Source: Albula goreensis
Lineage: Eukaryota > Chordata > Actinopteri > Albuliformes > Albulidae
Direction of reading: 5' to 3'
Length of the DNA: 64,000 bases
Assembly: GCA_022829145.1 (NCBI GenBank)
Contig: CM040749.1
Location: forward strand, 17,383,987-17,447,986
A program made the position numbers and the translations under genes. Under the pieces are notes generated by a model. The model searched no databases. It was not told where the DNA came from and saw only the letters and a list, made by a program, of their open reading frames with translations. Shown here piece by piece: positions 717 through 64,000 of the stretch; positions within the stretch are counted from its first letter, which is position 1; each line of letters opens with the position of its first letter.

Positions 717-13590
<12,874 letters not shown>

Positions 13591-24604: not shown

Positions 24605-24796
24605 TCAGACGGAGGAGATGCACTCGGTGGTACTAGTGACACATACCCCGCAGTCGCACCTCAGGGCCACAGGGTAGGTGTAGAAGGGGTCTACCTGGGC
24701 AGAGCAGTTGGGCAACTTGACTGTCACCATGCGAGTCTCATTGTAGGTGCACACACGCTGGTACGACTCAATGTACGGTGGGTCCAGAACAGGCTT
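24605..24796 (-). CDS. gphb5: gphb5 coding exon 2 (C-terminal half and stop)
   Basis: Encodes residues 94-156, KPVLDPPYIESYQRVC to the end, with stop TGA. The acceptor on the minus strand is CTGTCTCTACAG. It carries the last six cysteines and the N-glycosylation site. The 779-bp intron between the exons (24797-25575) shows nothing notable. Confidence 0.95.
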   Translation of the reverse strand, partial: KPVLDPPYIESYQRVCTYNETRMVTVKLPNCSAQVDPFYTYPVALRCDCGVCVTSTTECISSV

Positions 24797-25854
24797 CTGT
24801 AGAGACAGGGGCATATTATGCTGGGTCACTAATGGAAAGGAAGTGGGGTGCCAAGTGCCCCACTCCACCCCCCAACAATGCATTTCACAGGACCGTTTCA
24901 TGACATTTCCATTCTGTGTGCACAGATAACTAAACACTTTCATGAATGTGTGCTGTACAATGAGGGTCACTGTAATAGGCTGACTAAACTGGACAAAACT
25001 AACAGGACCCTATAAAGATTGCGCACCACAGTAGATAACCCAAAACCCTATGAACGATTCAAATTTTTAACCTGGTGTATTATATAGGATGAAACATAGA
25101 GTCCCTGAAAGGACTTAATTCCCAGTGCATGTACATCTCTGAGGTTCTACTGGACTGTATAAGATATGCAATTACATTATCTCATACAACATGACTCACA
25201 AGTATGGTATAGTATTATTTCATTTGTAACCAATTGCCCAAATATATACATTTTTGATATATGCTATTACTCTATTTTTCTCCATTTCTTTTGACCTAAT
25301 TTACTGCTCAACTTGCTTGTCTGGCTGACAACACATTTTATATTGTGAGTAAAATTAAACTTCTAATTGTGCTTCACATTATTAGAATACCATCTGTACC
25401 ATAATTAAACAAACCCTAACCTATATGGTGGACAGCTTTTGTGGTACATGGACTGAGTACAGTCTACAGTCTCTATTCTACATTTATAAAAGTCAAGATT
25501 CTAAAACTTTACACATTTTTTTAAACTTAAAGCTAGTAGGATGTACTTGCAATTGTGTATTTTTACCCTTCTCACCTCCCAGGTCTCACAGCGCCCCCAA
25601 CAGGCATCAGTGGTGATTTGCAGGCCACCGCAACCTGGTTTCCGAGCCAGGAATGTGAACTCCCGCACAGCACAGCCAATGAAGCGTCTCAGGTTAACAG
25701 TTTCACCTGTTGCCCCAGAACTGAGGCCAGTCAGGAGCACAGCACAGCACAGCACCACCCCACACCACCTCAGACACAGAGAACACAGGACACAGGGTGA
25801 GAACAACCTGCGCTCCAGAGAGTTAAACAAAGCCAGGACTAAGCACATCCACAT
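24605..25854 (-). CDS. gphb5: Glycoprotein hormone beta-5 (thyrostimulin beta subunit), two coding exons
   Basis: Secreted cystine-knot hormone subunit that pairs with GPHA2 to form thyrostimulin, a ligand of the TSH receptor in vertebrates. Exons 25854-25576 and 24796-24605 (TGA at 24605-24607) join at phase 0 to give 156 residues. A hydrophobic signal region lies at about residues 30-46. The mature part has ten cysteines (61, 75, 85, 89, 109, 124, 140, 142, 145, 152), the GPHB5 number, lacking the extra seat-belt pair of classical beta subunits. Family motifs are FIGCAVREFTFLARKPGC, CWGRCETWE, the N-glycosylation site YNET (Asn112) and the DPFYTYPVALRCDCG segment. The protein is longer than human (130) because of the N-terminus; the chosen Met is the first in the open frame and Met3 is an alternative. 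Confidence 0.95.
25576..25854 (-). CDS. gphb5: gphb5 coding exon 1 (signal peptide, first knot cysteines)
   Basis: Encodes residues 1-93, from the signal peptide to CWGRCETWE. The donor GTGAG lies at 25575-25571. The stretch before the hydrophobic core (residues 1-29, Cys- and Arg-containing) is unusual for a signal peptide, so the true start, or an upstream splice into this exon, is uncertain. Confidence 0.88.
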
Positions 25855-50100: not shown

Positions 50101-53100
50101 TCATATGGTAGTATATTTTTATGATGGTTGTCTGATAATGTTGGTGCTTATTGCCTGGTGGTGAGGCGAATTCTAAAGACTGCTGTGTCTTCTGCACTTT
50201 AGAGGAAACCGCCCTGTGCGGTGCTGGACCTATTTAATGACTTCCGTGATGGATCACGGCTATTGGACCTGCTGGAGGTGATGAGTGGCCAGCACATGGT
50301 GAGTCTGCCCCTTCACCACCCATTACCAACTGCGAGATCATGGGGAATGGATAGTGTGCTTTCTGCTTGTCCTTGCAGAGGTGTGAGCTTTCCTTTCCCC
50401 CTCACAGAGTCGGGAGAGAGGCCGAGGCGTCTTTCAGCACAGGAGCAACATTGAGACTGCCCTGGCCTTCCTGAGGAGGAAATCGGTTAGAGCTTCTGTC
50501 CGGCTTGTGTTAGGCTGGTGCTGTGGTCTGAACAGCTGAGAAGCCATCTCAAGATCATTCCTCATACTGTTGTCATGGCTAATATGTCAAGAGTACAAGT
50601 TTCAATAAGGCTGTCTGTCTATTGACTTGTGTTCATGCAGATCAAGCTGGTCAACATCAACATTCCGGACATCATGGATGGCAAGCCTTCCATCATCCTG
50701 GGCCTGATATGGACGATCATTCTACACTTTCATGTGAGCGACTCTCTCGTGCCAAGATGGCGCTGGCACAGGATTTTGTTGACATGACTTTGAAACTTAT
50801 ACTGTGGGCAAAGTCATGATTTAAAACTCTTTGATAAATGTTTGATGGTTTTTACAGAAAGAGGAACATACTCAAAGACAGATGAAAGGTTGTTTGAACT
50901 CCAGTAACTTCTTGTTGCATTCAGGGATTGACAGCTGTGATTTTTTTATGGATTTTAATTTATGAGTTTTAGACATTTCTTTGATTATTTGGAAATACTC
51001 GTAGTGGTAAGTGACACTTTTTTCCCTACATGAATTCATATCCTCAATGAGGCAATTAATTTTTCGGAATCAGTTACATAAAATCACAACAATAAATTAC
51101 ACATAAGATTACAATACAGCAATGAAGCAGGTGGACATCACCATGTGTGGAAAGTGCAGGTTTTCTAAAGTGCAATAATGCACAGGATCAACACCAGGTT
51201 GTTTTGTTCACTCATTGCTGCGAGGATCTGCTGTTTGTCCAACCCCGCCAAGTGAATGCCTCACACAGACTCAGGCAGAAGAAGCTGTTCTTGTGACTCG
51301 TCTGTGTAATGTGACGAGAGGTTATTGCTTCTTTCCATACCACAGATGCAACATTTTGCCCATTCTTGAGGAGAAACACAAAGATGCCATATGATGAGTT
51401 AACGCATCTTGCAGCTGCTTGGGCAGCCAGAGGATAGAGACTGATTGAGAGTGATGAGACTGAGGATTTTGACTGGCTTAATTCCTATTCTTCCCCAGAG
51501 AGGCTGAATCAATAATTGCCCTGCCATTGTGGCCATAGTCAGTAATGGTGTAGTGGGGACTTGACTAACCAGCTGTGGGACCCACAACTGCACCACAAAC
51601 AGGCTCTTAACTCCATGAATCACCCAAAGACCTGAGCAATGGAAATTCTACTTGGATTAAATGGAGAATGGGTCTGTCATCGTATCACCTGCTATTTATA
51701 ATTGGCAACTGAAAGACAGATGACATATCCTGTTTCAGAGCTTCAGTATTTGGAGCAGTGTCAGTAATCTGTGATGATAATCCTCTGGTAAAGAGACAGG
51801 ATTTATACAGAGTCCTGATTGCTCTCAGAGTTATTTTTCAGAGTTATTAGTCAGAAGAGCCAGTTCCAATCAGATACATTGTGAAACTGGGAAGGCAGTT
51901 GTGTTTCTGTCTATGTTTTACTGTGGGCATCTGCCACTGTTATGGATCTGGTTCCCTCTGGCTGTTTCAGATCGAGGAACTGGCCTGCACTCTGTCCTTC
52001 AGTTCACGGCAGTCCTCTCTGGAGTCGCTGGCCAGTCTGGACTCCCACAGCACCAGCAGTCGCAGTAGCAGCAGTAGCCCCTTGCCACGGAGAGGGTCAC
52101 CCCTGCATACACGCTTCCGCATCTCCGCCAAGAAGGCTCTGCTGTTGTGGGTCAGGGAACAGTTGCACAAGTGAGCATTCATCCTCGCCACTCTTGTCTC
52201 ACTAACAAGAGTCACAGCCACATCCAAAATAAGCAGTGCCTCACCAGAGGGTGTATTCCCCACGGCTTCAGCCATTTCTCTAATAAAGTGATATGTTCGT
52301 CCTTAGCTTTTTCTTATTAAAGTGTATTTACTTATTAACTAATGCATGTTTTTACCCTCTAAATTCACTGTTAGTTATTATTGTTACATTTATCAAAAAG
52401 CCCTACTGGATTGTTTTCTTTACTTGTAGCTTTTTTTTTCATTGTATTTCTGTTTTTGTATTGTTTAGTATTTGTTTTATTTTTATTAAAAACCTGTTTT
52501 TATGCCTACACGTAATAAATAAGAACACTCCTTGTCTGGCTGCCTTACCCGCACTGTTGTCCTGTGATGTGCTGTCTAGGGTGGGCTGCACTCTCAGTGT
52601 TAAAGACTTCAAGGCCAGCTGGCGAAGCGGGGTGGTGTTCCTGGCCATCCTCTGCGCTCTTCGCCCAGACCTGGTGGACCTGTCAAAGGCCAGAAACAGA
52701 TCTAACAAGCAGAACCTGGAGGAGGCCTTTCGCATGGCTGAGCAGGAGCTTCGAATCCCGAAACTCCTGGAACCAGAGGGTAAGGGTTGACATCAGATTT
52801 GGAGCAGAAAAGGAGTTGCAGTTTCTCAATATGCTTGAATGTATTTCCGTTGTGGTTTAGTTCAGGGAGGCATCCAGCACTCTTGGCTACATGCTTAGGG
52901 AGCCTTAACAGCACTTCCTAAGGCTATTAGGCTGGCATATCAACTTCCAAATTACACTTGAGTTCCAATTCACTCCACCTTTGTAGATGTTGATGTCAGG
53001 GACCCAGATGAGAAGTCCATTATGACCTATGTGGCCCAGTTCCTGCAGTACTCCCAGGACCTGCCTATATCTGAGGTGGAAATGCAGGTAAGATTTTTTG

Positions 53101-59100: not shown

Positions 59101-62100
59101 TGTACAGAGAAAAATACTCTAGCTTAATTTATTATAGAGTGTGACAGCAGATAAGGGGTGTTGATTTTGTATTTTATATATCTTATAGCAAAACACATTT
59201 TTGTATATTGGGAGCCCAGTAATACTGTGCAGCATATAAGGGCATACATTTAAAAAGAAAGAATATGAGTTGTACAGTATGATGTTCGATTTAACTGCGG
59301 CAGCTTAGATGCCTCTTCTGTATGATCAAAGAATCTTGTTTGTTGTTTGAAAAGAACAGGTTTTCATCCTGAAATGTGTCCTCTCTTCACCAGATGACAC
59401 CTGAGTGTCTGTCAGAATGGACTGCCCATCAGGCTCACTTGAATGAGGTGGGGAACTTCCTCACCAAAATGACGGCTCCACAGATTAGCCGGGTCCTGGC
59501 AGATGAAATGCGCAAAGTCAACATGCAGTGGGCTGACTTTGTCAAGAGAACCAAATTTGTAAGCCTTGATCTTAACCAAGTTTGTTTTATGGAGGCTCCT
59601 CTGTAAGACCAGATGTACCTCTTTCAGTATTTTTGACAAATCTGTATGAACTCTTTAAGTGTGCAACCCATTTTACTATATCATAAACATAAGGTGTGTT
59701 ATGTTTGGACAAACAGCAACAGTTATATGTTACGATAAAGTTCATATGTCCTTATCGTGCTTTAATCTTAAAGTTGAAACTATAAGCAATATAAACTGGA
59801 CTCGTTATAATACTTATGACCATGCACCCTCTCAGACTTTATCTTTAGAGCCCAGCAGTAGCCTGCCAAGTCCCCAGGCTGTGCAGGCCCTCTTCCGTGA
59901 AGCAGGCCAGTTGTTGAAAGAACCAATAGAGGTTTTGTCTGGACCTTTGCACACCTACAGGAAGAGGTTACAGGTATTGAGTGTCTTTGAGATGACTTTT
60001 TTGTGTTTCTAATGCTAGCCTTTGTGGCAGAGCCTCAGTGTGTCAGTTGTGATGGATGCTGTAGTAGTGCTCTGCTCCAGATTAGCTGGCCAAGTCCTCA
60101 GCCCCGGAAAAGACACTTGTGGTTCTTGTCATCTAAATGAGCTATTCCTAAAATATCTGTGAAACACTAACTTTGACAACACTTTAGCCTGTAGTTGTAT
60201 AAAAGGTGTATTACAACATCCTACCATCAAACATTGAGCATGCTTAAATGGACCACTCTTACGAACATTTCAAGATTATCTTTCTGCTGTCTTTTGTCAT
60301 ATCAGTATCTTTGTCATGTGCATGGTGTGATGTATTTGTGTAATCTGAAATGATTCATCGCTATTCAGTGTAAGTTCACTGGATAATGGTTCCATCCCTC
60401 TGTTTCAGTTCATGATGAAGAAGATAAAGGAGGTGGACTTTGACTCTCTCTCCCAGTCCCCAGACTGCTCATCTGAACTTTTACAGAAACTCAAGCACAC
60501 AGTGCCTGAGGTACAGCATGCTGGCTCAATATATATATTACCTTCCTAAATGTATGTTTATGAATAGCTAAACTAAAGCATTGCTCATATGGAAATTCTG
60601 GTTGTTGTAAATCCTTTGAAGATTAAAGAATTATCATTATAAGTTTTTGTGCAGACAGCATGAATGGTGACATTCTTTGTGTGTCTTTGTAGATGTGTAT
60701 TTATTTGCATGTGTGTGTATGCAGGTAATGCTTACACTGGGTGGAGCAGAACAGGTATGTGAAGAGCTGCAGCAGAGTGTATCTGGCCTGAATAGTCGTT
60801 TGGCAGAGTTACAGCACTGTGAGACAGAAGCCAGAGAGGTCTACGAGCTCCTAAAGGAGGAGTGGAAGTATGGCCAAAATCAAGACCCCAGGGCCAGAGT
60901 AAGTACCATTATTTCATAGAACATCATGTTGCCCTTTCTGTTTCATGACTTTTGGGTGTTAAGTTGAATCCATAAAATGATTTTAACACAGATCTCCCTC
61001 TGTTAAAAGTTAAGTAGCTGTAGATATATGCAACTAATTGTATATGCCTTTTTCATTCCATTAGATGTTCATCTCTCGAGGCTTGCAGCTGGAAGGTCAG
61101 GTAGTGACTGAGGAACAAGATCTCCAAGTTATGGTGATGACTGCCCAGAAGAACTCCCCCCTGCAATACTTGATTGCATCTGCAATGCAAGACAGGGTCA
61201 GAGCTGCTGTTTCCCACTCACAGGTGCTATAGTTTGTTTCCTTTTCTGTACCATTTTATGATGAAAGATAGCAATGTTGATGATAAGGATGATGATGAAT
61301 GTCTATAGATGCAGTATGTTTGCCTAATTTTCCTTTATATGGTATCAATAAATTAAGGACAGAGCTCTTATATACTCCTCCAGGAGGCTGTTGGGATGCT
61401 CAGCTCTCTTGGGGCTCGACGAGATCGAAGTCCAGCTGAAGATCAGCCACCTCCTAAGATCTTTATCCAATCTTTCACGGAGGATGAGCCCCAAAGTCAA
61501 GCAGATGTCAAGGCTCAAACTGTTTCTGAGGCCCAGGCTTTGACTGAGCCCCAGGCTTTGGTCGAGCCCTGGGTTATGCCTGAGACCCATCCCCAAGAAG
61601 AGCCTAAACCCCCAACTCAACCCAAGCCCACAGAGCAACACCGGCCTGATCCCAAACCTTTAACTGACGCCCAACCCCCTCCTGAACCTCAAGTGCAGAC
61701 ACAGTCCCAAGTTGTGTCTCACCCTGCTGAATTAGCTAAGTGTCAAGTTCAACCTCAACCTGAGCCTAAGACCCAACCTCAATCCACATCTCTTCCTCAG
61801 GGTCAGCCTTATCCCCATCCTTTGCCACAGATCCACATCCAGGATTACACAGAGTCCCAGCCTCAGCTGCCAGCCTTCACATATGCACAGGCAGTGACTC
61901 AGTCACTGCCTCAATCACAGCCACCGTCACAGCATAAAATAGAAAGCCAAGTTCAAACCCCAGCTCACACCCCAGTTTACAGCCAAGCAGTCTCTAAATC
62001 TCTGGCCTACAACCAAGATGAAGTGCAGACTAAAACTAAGGCCCCAGTTCAGTCTGTATCACAGACCCAAGCCCATATGATAACCCAGGATCAATCTCAA

Positions 62101-64000: not shown

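What the first reader, a model, noticed from the sequence alone, without database searches (positions are those of the whole stretch)
61384..63777. About 745-residue Gln/Pro-rich disordered insert inside the nesprin-2 spectrin rod, encoded by one giant exon
A 2,394-nt open exon joins in phase to conserved spectrin-like exons on both sides and encodes a long Gln-alternating, Pro/Ala/His/Thr-rich sequence. Mammalian SYNE2, as I know it, has only about 20 residues between the corresponding helices. A flexible spacer this long near the actin-binding end could add reach, act as a binding or phase-separating region, or mark a tissue-specific isoform. The exon is symmetric, so inclusion could be regulated. 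This is the best candidate here for an undescribed system.
Basis: partly seen in the sequence, partly recalled or inferred. Interest (0 to 1): 0.8.

Follow-up and report, generated by a model that had tools for sequence, protein, structure and literature searches.

The report
Teleost nesprin-2 alternating-glutamine disordered insert
A bonefish gene for a giant protein that ties the cell nucleus to the actin skeleton carries a 725-residue floppy, glutamine-rich stretch in its rod; related stretches occur in many bony fishes and in both copies of the gene, with glutamine at every second position and a few recurring short motifs.

Summary
Exon 61384-63777 (798 codons, phase 0/0, no stop) lies between spectrin exons of a syne2 gene that has CH exons upstream and, in the same assembly, a KASH exon 93 kb past the exon. 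The insert proper is 725 residues (61435-63609). It is not unique: 32 teleost syne2b-type models have it (173-1209 aa), syne2a-type models mostly have shorter ones, and the assembly's second syne2 copy has it in the same exon. The one gar model seen lacks it, so it probably arose on the teleost stem, before the two copies parted. It is mostly disordered but patterned: 173 of 177 Gln share one two-residue register, and islands (PPxKIFIQ, IVVQEY, PYTYAQAV, NRPWLQ) recur in order across fishes. The exon's ends encode rod sequence, so regulated skipping of the whole exon is unlikely. Best reading: a teleost hinge or tether with docking motifs, grown by duplication of six-nucleotide-multiple units. 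Function is untested; nearly neutral growth is the main rival. In passing: the same gene has a retained-intron C-terminus ending in a CaaX-like box (CTIS), shared with public models of five other fishes.

The parts
61065..61223 (+). Spectrin-rod exon immediately upstream ([12 protein letters not shown]...AAVSHSQ), phase 0
   Evidence: 100% identical to Albula P0001 766-818
61384..63777 (+). Giant exon, 798 codons, phase 0/0
61384..61434 (+). N-terminal 17 codons [17 protein letters not shown], rod sequence; alignable in the gar model
61435..63609 (+). Insert proper, 725 residues, mostly disordered, Gln in a strict two-residue register
61447..61470 (+). Island 1, PPPKIFIQ
   Evidence: related start in the second syne2 copy on C7 (PPPKILI) and in 17 of 85 syne2a-type rows
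61825..61848 (+). Island 2, PQIHIQDY (consensus VPxIVVQEY)
   Evidence: 28 of 37 rows
61876..61896 (+). Island 3, FTYAQAV (consensus PYTYAQAV)
   Evidence: 22 of 37 rows matched a loose pattern, at least one of them (P0083) spuriously; [11 protein letters not shown] on C7
62203..62244 (+). Weak short helix predicted just before island 4, residues 274-287 (ten-residue block means 47 and 58)
   Evidence: not predicted from the single sequence
62245..62262 (+). Island 4, NRPWLQ
   Evidence: 29 of 37 rows match [NHT]RPW; NRPWL in 22 of 32 syne2b-type inserts, in none of 200 shuffled sets
62560..62814 (+). 84-nt tandem repeat, 3.0 copies
62758..63036 (+). 78-nt tandem repeat, 3.6 copies
63296..63458 (+). 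66-nt tandem repeat, 2.5 copies
63610..63777 (+). C-terminal 56 codons: conserved [21 protein letters not shown] and a long spectrin helix (model helix 748-795, about 63625-63768)
   Evidence: last 40 codons align with gar
63942..64000 (+). Next rod exon ([20 protein letters not shown]...), runs past the window end (protein match to window-scale 64079)
52572..52778 (+). CH domain exon of the same gene (second CH)

Best explanation
The exon encodes a teleost-type disordered hinge in nesprin-2. On the teleost stem, before the two fish syne2 copies parted, a short stretch inside an ordinary spectrin exon was filled by an array of two-residue units, [P/T/A/V/S/I]-[Q/H/K/E], that grew by in-frame duplication of units whose length is a multiple of six nucleotides. 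Both gene copies kept it, and syne2b enlarged it. Shown here: the exon, its position, the register, its spread among the teleost models seen, its presence in both syne2 copies of this assembly, and recurrent ordered islands. Inferred: it works as a flexible, extensible tether that uncouples the actin-binding CH domains and first spectrin repeats from the rest of the rod, and the islands (above all the basic stretch plus NRPWLQ) are docking sites for cytoskeletal or signalling partners, while the Gln array keeps the chain soluble, nearly uncharged and extended between them. Identity of the exon is about 0.95 sure, common origin in both copies about 0.85, teleost-stem dating about 0.65 (one gar model), tether-plus-docking about 0.5. 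These were set apart, and the dating lowered, after checking the gar alignment.
For: Open frame and splice sites. CH-to-KASH gene. Same insert site in 32 syne2b-type rows, median 866.5 aa, range 173-1209. Albula glossodonta P0001 is identical at 479 of 496 aligned insert residues. The second syne2 copy of the same assembly (C7:27096158 onward) has [19 protein letters not shown] and 92% even Gln gaps, z 6.3. Megalops P0045 matches that C7 copy better than the window copy (63% against 55%) and has 99% even gaps; an Albula+Megalops clade is rejected (p-AU 1.2e-5), so these are different copies and the insert predates their split. Island counts in 32 syne2b-type inserts: NRPWL 22 (shuffles 0), I[VIHL][VI]Q[ED] 23 (shuffle mean 0.21), [YF][TSA]YA[QED]A 17 (shuffles 0). 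In the 12-row alignment A1 the islands stand out: P148, I150, V171 invariant, R289-P290-W291 at 90% or more. Disorder: hydropathy 0.379 against a Uversky limit of 0.415 at near-zero net charge; 677 of 798 residues below pLDDT 50 with alignment, 537 without. At Gln-register positions one-step neighbours of CAA/CAG are 35 His, 33 Lys, 21 Glu, 10 Pro, 6 Arg, 5 Leu and 0 stops; Arg and stop are the transition outcomes, so their rarity suggests a filter at protein level.
Against: No RNA, protein, binding or mechanical data. Length varies about sevenfold among models, which fits weak constraint (some short ones may be gene-prediction artefacts). Internal repeats differ more by nonsynonymous than synonymous codons (522 against 126 over 34 overlapping blocks), with only a modest third-position excess (321, 229, 406 differences at positions 1, 2, 3). 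The residue filter is not clean: Leu and Pro, which are transversions, are also rare, and His/Lys/Glu may have spread by duplication. Islands are missing in many rows: 10 of 32 lack NRPWL and 15 of 32 lack the YAQA form; island 3 is not recognisable in most otophysan rows and altered in poeciliids. Even-gap excess is weak (z below 2.5) in 4 of the 32 rows. Docking partners are unknown: the string NRPWLQ occurs in no held paper and the exon has no Pfam hit at E 0.01. The gar row is one 'partial' predicted protein with an internal duplication; its model could have spliced an insert out. The C7 copy is not cleanly tied to syne2a: of the five rows tried only Megalops matches it better than the window copy; P0051 (syne2a), P0009, P0129 (gar) and P0001 match the window copy better, and the tree does not settle where Megalops goes (p 0.265 with 2a, 0.112 with 2b).
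Confidence: 0.55

Rival explanations
1. A nearly neutral low-complexity expansion: slippage and unequal crossing-over in hexanucleotide-type repeats enlarged a tolerant loop, and the chain has no specific role beyond not disturbing the rod.
For: The six distinct tandem-repeat periods in the eight rows found are all multiples of six (18, 24, 84, 78, 156, 66). Length is very variable. The register alone can follow from duplication of six-nt units. Nonsynonymous differences dominate between repeat copies.
Against: The same islands recur in the same order across distant teleosts, and two of them on both copies in this assembly. Codons are mixed (71 CAA, 106 CAG at Gln), so the register is old yet kept. 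Arg is rare and stops absent among one-step neighbours.
Confidence: 0.3
2. A regulated cassette exon: inclusion makes a long-hinge isoform and skipping a short one.
For: The exon is phase 0/0. Some public models have shortened inserts; the gap in P0001 at LQSP|KMQ is what splicing between GT and AG sites inside the window exon (345, 429 or 513 nt, all in frame) would give.
Against: Whole-exon skipping would delete the 73 end codons, of which 57 align with gar and the last part is a confident helix. The internal 'introns' remove the NRPWLQ island and look like gene-prediction artefacts in repeats (judgement, no RNA data).
Confidence: 0.06
3. A self-assembling region: the alternating pattern makes amphipathic beta strands or a Gln-based condensate.
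For: Alternation places small and beta-branched residues on one side and Gln/His/Lys on the other. The single-sequence model draws strands at residues 320-550 (block means about 42-64).
Against: With a 12-row alignment no strand of three or more residues remains and pLDDT there is below 50, so the strands are probably a repeat artefact. Neighbouring Gln are almost absent (lag-1 ratio 0.02) and Asn is 1.5%, unlike polyQ or Q/N prion-like domains. No prion-propensity program was run.
Confidence: 0.07
4. Not translated: an open stretch without a product.
For: No transcript or peptide was available here.
Against: Zero stops in 798 codons, consensus splice sites, in-frame islands shared by many teleosts, and protein models that include it.
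Confidence: 0.02

Closest known systems
Nesprin-2 giant (SYNE2) rod
   Same: CH actin-binding end, spectrin rod and KASH end in the same gene
   Different: A 725-residue disordered insert near the actin end; in the gar model one residue separates the two anchor alignments, and the first 16 residues of the downstream anchor have no counterpart.
Dystrophin-type hinges (recalled)
   Same: Flexible, Pro-rich spacer between spectrin repeats
   Different: Recalled to be tens of residues; this one is 725 aa, sits inside one exon, and carries a two-residue Gln register and islands
Titin PEVK-type springs (recalled)
   Same: Long repeated disordered segment in a load-bearing giant protein
   Different: Different composition; here almost no net charge (+3 in 725 residues) and Gln in place of Glu/Lys; mechanics untested
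Unstructured stretch between the C-terminal nesprin repeat triplets (PMC3646009, passages)
   Same: Unstructured stretch with an invariant motif inside a nesprin rod
   Different: It lies near KASH in nesprin-1alpha and -2beta; the present insert is at the actin end
PolyQ / Q-N prion-like domains (recalled)
   Same: Gln-rich, disordered
   Different: Adjacent Gln are avoided (lag-1 ratio 0.02); Asn 1.5%

Membership tests
Nesprin-2 (SYNE2) | N-terminal CH domains | tested here: met
   Pfam CH on one window exon; further exons match the CH region of P0001 and P0009 in order; P0001 has two CH stretches
Nesprin-2 (SYNE2) | Nesprin-type spectrin repeats | tested here: met
   PF25034 above cut-off in two window exons
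Nesprin-2 (SYNE2) | C-terminal KASH domain in the same gene | tested here: met
   KASH exon with ...YTNGPPPT stop at window-scale 156703-156876, E 4.8e-26, with homologous rod exons between
Nesprin-2 (SYNE2) | Nuclear-envelope location, SUN binding | not testable with these tools
   Needs experiments
Spectrin-rod hinge (dystrophin-like) | Non-spectrin, flexible segment between rod helices | tested here: met
   Flanked by rod sequence; mostly below pLDDT 50 with alignment. Low confidence is indirect evidence of flexibility
Spectrin-rod hinge (dystrophin-like) | Adds flexibility under load | not testable with these tools
   No mechanical data
PolyQ / Q-N prion-like domain | Gln runs or high Gln+Asn | tested here: not met
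   Lag-1 Gln-Gln ratio 0.02; Asn 1.5%. Gln alone is 24.4%
Beta-solenoid or other folded repeat | Confident repeated fold | tested here: not met
   Strands only in the single-sequence model, below pLDDT 70, absent with alignment
Titin PEVK-type spring | PEVK composition, Glu-rich and Lys-rich | tested here: not met
   Glu 3.7%, Lys 5.0%, Gln 24.4%

The most novel reading that the evidence does not exclude
The two-residue register is itself the selected feature: [small/beta-branched/Pro]-[Gln/His/Lys/Glu] units make a nearly uncharged, extended polar spring of about 260 nm contour length (725 residues at a recalled 0.36 nm each) between the actin-binding end and the rest of a LINC-complex rod. 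Its docking islands would be exposed only when the chain is pulled out, giving teleost nesprin-2 a force sensor that the short gar-type linker lacks.
Probability: 0.12. Interest if true: 0.75.

Novelty: new variant of a known kind. Interest (0 to 1): 0.5.

Why it matters
Nesprins transmit force between actin and nucleus through what is drawn as a continuous spectrin rod. A recurring disordered insert of hundreds of residues near the actin end, in both fish copies of the gene, means that fish (a zebrafish syne2b mutant has been used to study epiboly, PMC8248263 passages) may run a nesprin-2 with different reach and partners from the mammalian one. It also offers a clean case of a disordered region whose residue-level register and a few short motifs persist while length and sequence drift.

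Tried and rejected
Considered and rejected: an alternative-frame product of 391 codons at 62492-63664, a by-product of the repeats in a frame that is not open over the whole exon. PDB matches of the exon to ribosomal protein L29 (two sequences, best E 0.0003) read as low-complexity hits. The strands of the single-sequence model were dropped after the alignment-based model. The shorter insert of P0001 was first read as a species difference; its LQSP|KMQ junction is what GT-AG pairs in the window exon would give, so I treat it as a predicted intron. Whether Megalops P0045 is syne2a was not settled by the tree (33 of the 129 proteins; held with 2a p 0.265, with 2b p 0.112). That it is not Albula's syne2b rests on the rejected Albula+Megalops clade and its closer match to the C7 copy.

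Grouping: the '2b' set of 32 was made by alignment score and insert length (150-1500 aa). P0043/P0044, named syne2b, fell into the '2a' set of 84. P0028, a syne2b-type row, was in the 86-row set and is one of its 18 hits, hence 17 of 85. P0005, P0021, P0027 and P0049 were outside the 32. P0005, P0072 and P0074 gave no usable insert; P0129 was treated apart.

Led nowhere: PDB search of the spliced flanks (one hit at E 0.5); paper search for the NRPWLQ string (no paper); a mammalian sequence for this site (one search listed 120 of 442 hits; the rest were not seen).

Full report
What is there. Window 61384-63777 is one exon of 798 codons with consensus splice sites and phase 0 at both ends. The frame has no stop; the other two + frames have 11 and 44, and 500 order-2 simulations of the same composition never gave an open run above 439 codons. 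The neighbouring exons are nesprin rod: Pfam finds CH in one and PF25034 spectrin in two other window exons. Fetching the same contig downstream (C9) shows the gene running on to a KASH exon at window-scale 156703-156876, ending ...YTNGPPPT. The species is a bonefish or close kin: Albula glossodonta P0001 is identical at 597 of 638 aligned positions (14 partly overlapping pieces) in the 600 residues before the insert.

Anatomy. The first 17 codons ([17 protein letters not shown]) and the last 56 (LAQAPPQAY...EKE) are shared with other fish nesprin-2 rods; in gar the 17 and the last 40 find counterparts. Between them lie 725 residues, 61435-63609, with Gln 24.4%, Pro 13.2%, net charge +3. The last part of the exon is a confident helix (748-795; block means 91-94 over its core). 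The exon is therefore best seen as a spectrin exon with an internal expansion rather than a stand-alone cassette.

The register. 173 of 177 Gln share one parity over 725 residues; register positions hold Gln 48%, His 10%, Lys 9%, Glu 6%, and the others Pro 23%, Thr 16%, Ala 15%, Val 12%, Ser 11%, Ile 7%. At DNA level the second codon base is A in 278 of 362 register codons and C or T in 311 of 363 others. The six distinct tandem periods found are multiples of six nucleotides. Even Gln-Gln gaps make 97.7% here, 94% in P0001, 99% in Megalops P0045, 93% in Scleropages P0012 and 45-88% in the other 30 of 32 syne2b-type rows (shuffled 42-46%; P0010, P0023, P0029 and P0076 have z below 2.5); the mean over 83 syne2a-type rows is 63% against 47% shuffled. 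I read the register as ancestral and decayed in derived fishes.

Islands. In 32 syne2b-type inserts NRPWL occurs in 22, an IVVQE-like motif in 23 and YAQA in 17; shuffles give 0, 0.21 and 0 on average. Printed rows show the order PPxK[IV]F[IV]Q, VPxIVVQEY, PYTYAQAV, then a (K/R)-rich stretch with NRPWLQ. With a 12-row alignment AlphaFold2 leaves 677 of 798 residues below pLDDT 50, draws a weak helix at 274-287 directly before NRPWLQ (block means 47 and 58) and no strand of three or more residues. The single-sequence model had drawn strands in the repeats.

Spread and age. One search found 8 teleost nesprin-2 proteins, 70, and 442, of which 120 were listed; all rows listed are teleosts except one gar (P0129), and the 322 unlisted rows were not seen. 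In the gar model one residue separates the two anchor alignments; it is a 'partial' model with a duplicated stretch, so it is moderate evidence of absence. The window's assembly holds a second syne2 locus on C7 (KASH at C7:27169539). Its exon at C7:27096158 starts with the same GAGGCTGTT and carries [21 protein letters not shown] and 92% even Gln gaps (z 6.3); RPW and the IVVQ motif were not found in the piece read there. Its frame is interrupted once near the 3' end (assembly error, unseen intron or decay, not resolved). Megalops P0045 matches the C7 copy better than the window copy (63% against 55%), but the trout syne2a row P0051 (51 against 57%), P0009 (51 against 62%), gar (50 against 57%) and P0001 (53 against 94%) match the window copy better, so either the C7 copy evolves fast or its link to syne2a is open. 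An Albula+Megalops clade is rejected (p-AU 1.2e-5). Both copies hence had the insert when they parted; that this was the teleost genome duplication is inferred. 17 of 85 syne2a-type rows still show the first island (shuffle mean 0.22 for the 86-row set).

How it most likely works. Shown: a probably disordered, nearly uncharged chain inside a rod, with recurrent islands. Inferred: a hinge or tether that frees the actin-binding end from the rest of the rod and presents docking motifs. Among one-step neighbours of Gln codons at register positions there are 89 His/Lys/Glu, 6 Arg, no stop, but also few Leu (5) and Pro (10): residues that stay polar are kept, which argues for selection on the protein, unless they spread by duplication. 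The sevenfold length range and the excess of nonsynonymous differences between repeat copies (522 against 126 codons over 34 overlapping blocks) argue that much of the array is loosely constrained. I put tether-plus-docking at about 0.5-0.55 and mostly neutral growth at about 0.3.

What is known. Paper searches listed no title or abstract about such an insert; I saw passages of four papers and only listings of the rest. PMC8248263 (passages) gives zebrafish syne2b as 131 exons, 9,853 aa with KASH, which leaves room for such inserts, though I did not see its sequence.

A side finding. Downstream in the same gene an exon (window-scale 106698-106799) ends at ATG|GTAAAC. Reading on into the intron gives VNKSPSVNLSKTSTKPQQKCTIS and a stop at 106869-106871. 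Six public syne2b-type models from five species end in homologous tails (...QQKCVVS...EQKCVVS...QHRCVVS...QQWCLVS, and ...QQRCSLC in two isoforms of one species). P0021 shows the spliced form at the same place (SLPESM|GSQPEP); P0027 and P0049 read through the Cys into other sequence. 85 of the 129 proteins fetched end in the KASH PPPT instead. In this genome exons homologous to the KASH-bearing models follow. Nesprin isoforms that end in retained introns are reported (PMC3388047, passage), and KASH-less N-terminal nesprin-2 variants too (PMC4948682, passages). A CaaX box at such an end was not seen in the listings (20 of 105 listed) or in the PMC3388047 text (0 hits for CAAX and prenyl). Prenylation is a prediction from the motif alone. 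It deserves its own study.

Noticed in passing
C9 downstream of the window, window-scale 106698-106871 (loci L009-L016 joined): Retained-intron C-terminus of syne2b encodes ...KPQQKCTIS stop, a CaaX-like box; homologous tails end P0005, P0009, P0024, P0025, P0043 and P0044 (five species, carp to percomorphs). Predicts a KASH-less, possibly prenylated nesprin-2b isoform.
   Followed up: partly
C9, window-scale about 83767-85761: A second giant exon of the same gene with disorder-type composition (665 codons, Glu 11.6%, Thr 9.8%, Asp 8.3%); large stretches without syne2a match also occur in P0009 (about 4466-6006) and P0001 (about 2330-3740).
   Followed up: partly
G000:C7:27096158-27097500 (L030): Insert exon of the second syne2 copy; its open frame stops once near the 3' end and resumes in another frame, which may be an assembly error, an unseen intron or decay.
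   Followed up: partly
window 24608-25009, minus strand: Cystine-knot ORF (PF00007, E 4.8e-13) that looks like glycoprotein hormone beta 5 (recalled, as is its place near SYNE2 in vertebrates).
   Followed up: no
window 5797-6334: Minisatellite-like repeat open in three frames ([20 protein letters not shown] units).
   Followed up: no
P0010, P0021, P0023, P0024, P0001: Several public models have shortened inserts or lack NRPWLQ (P0023 is short but keeps it); they could be false introns or true splicing within the exon.
   Followed up: partly
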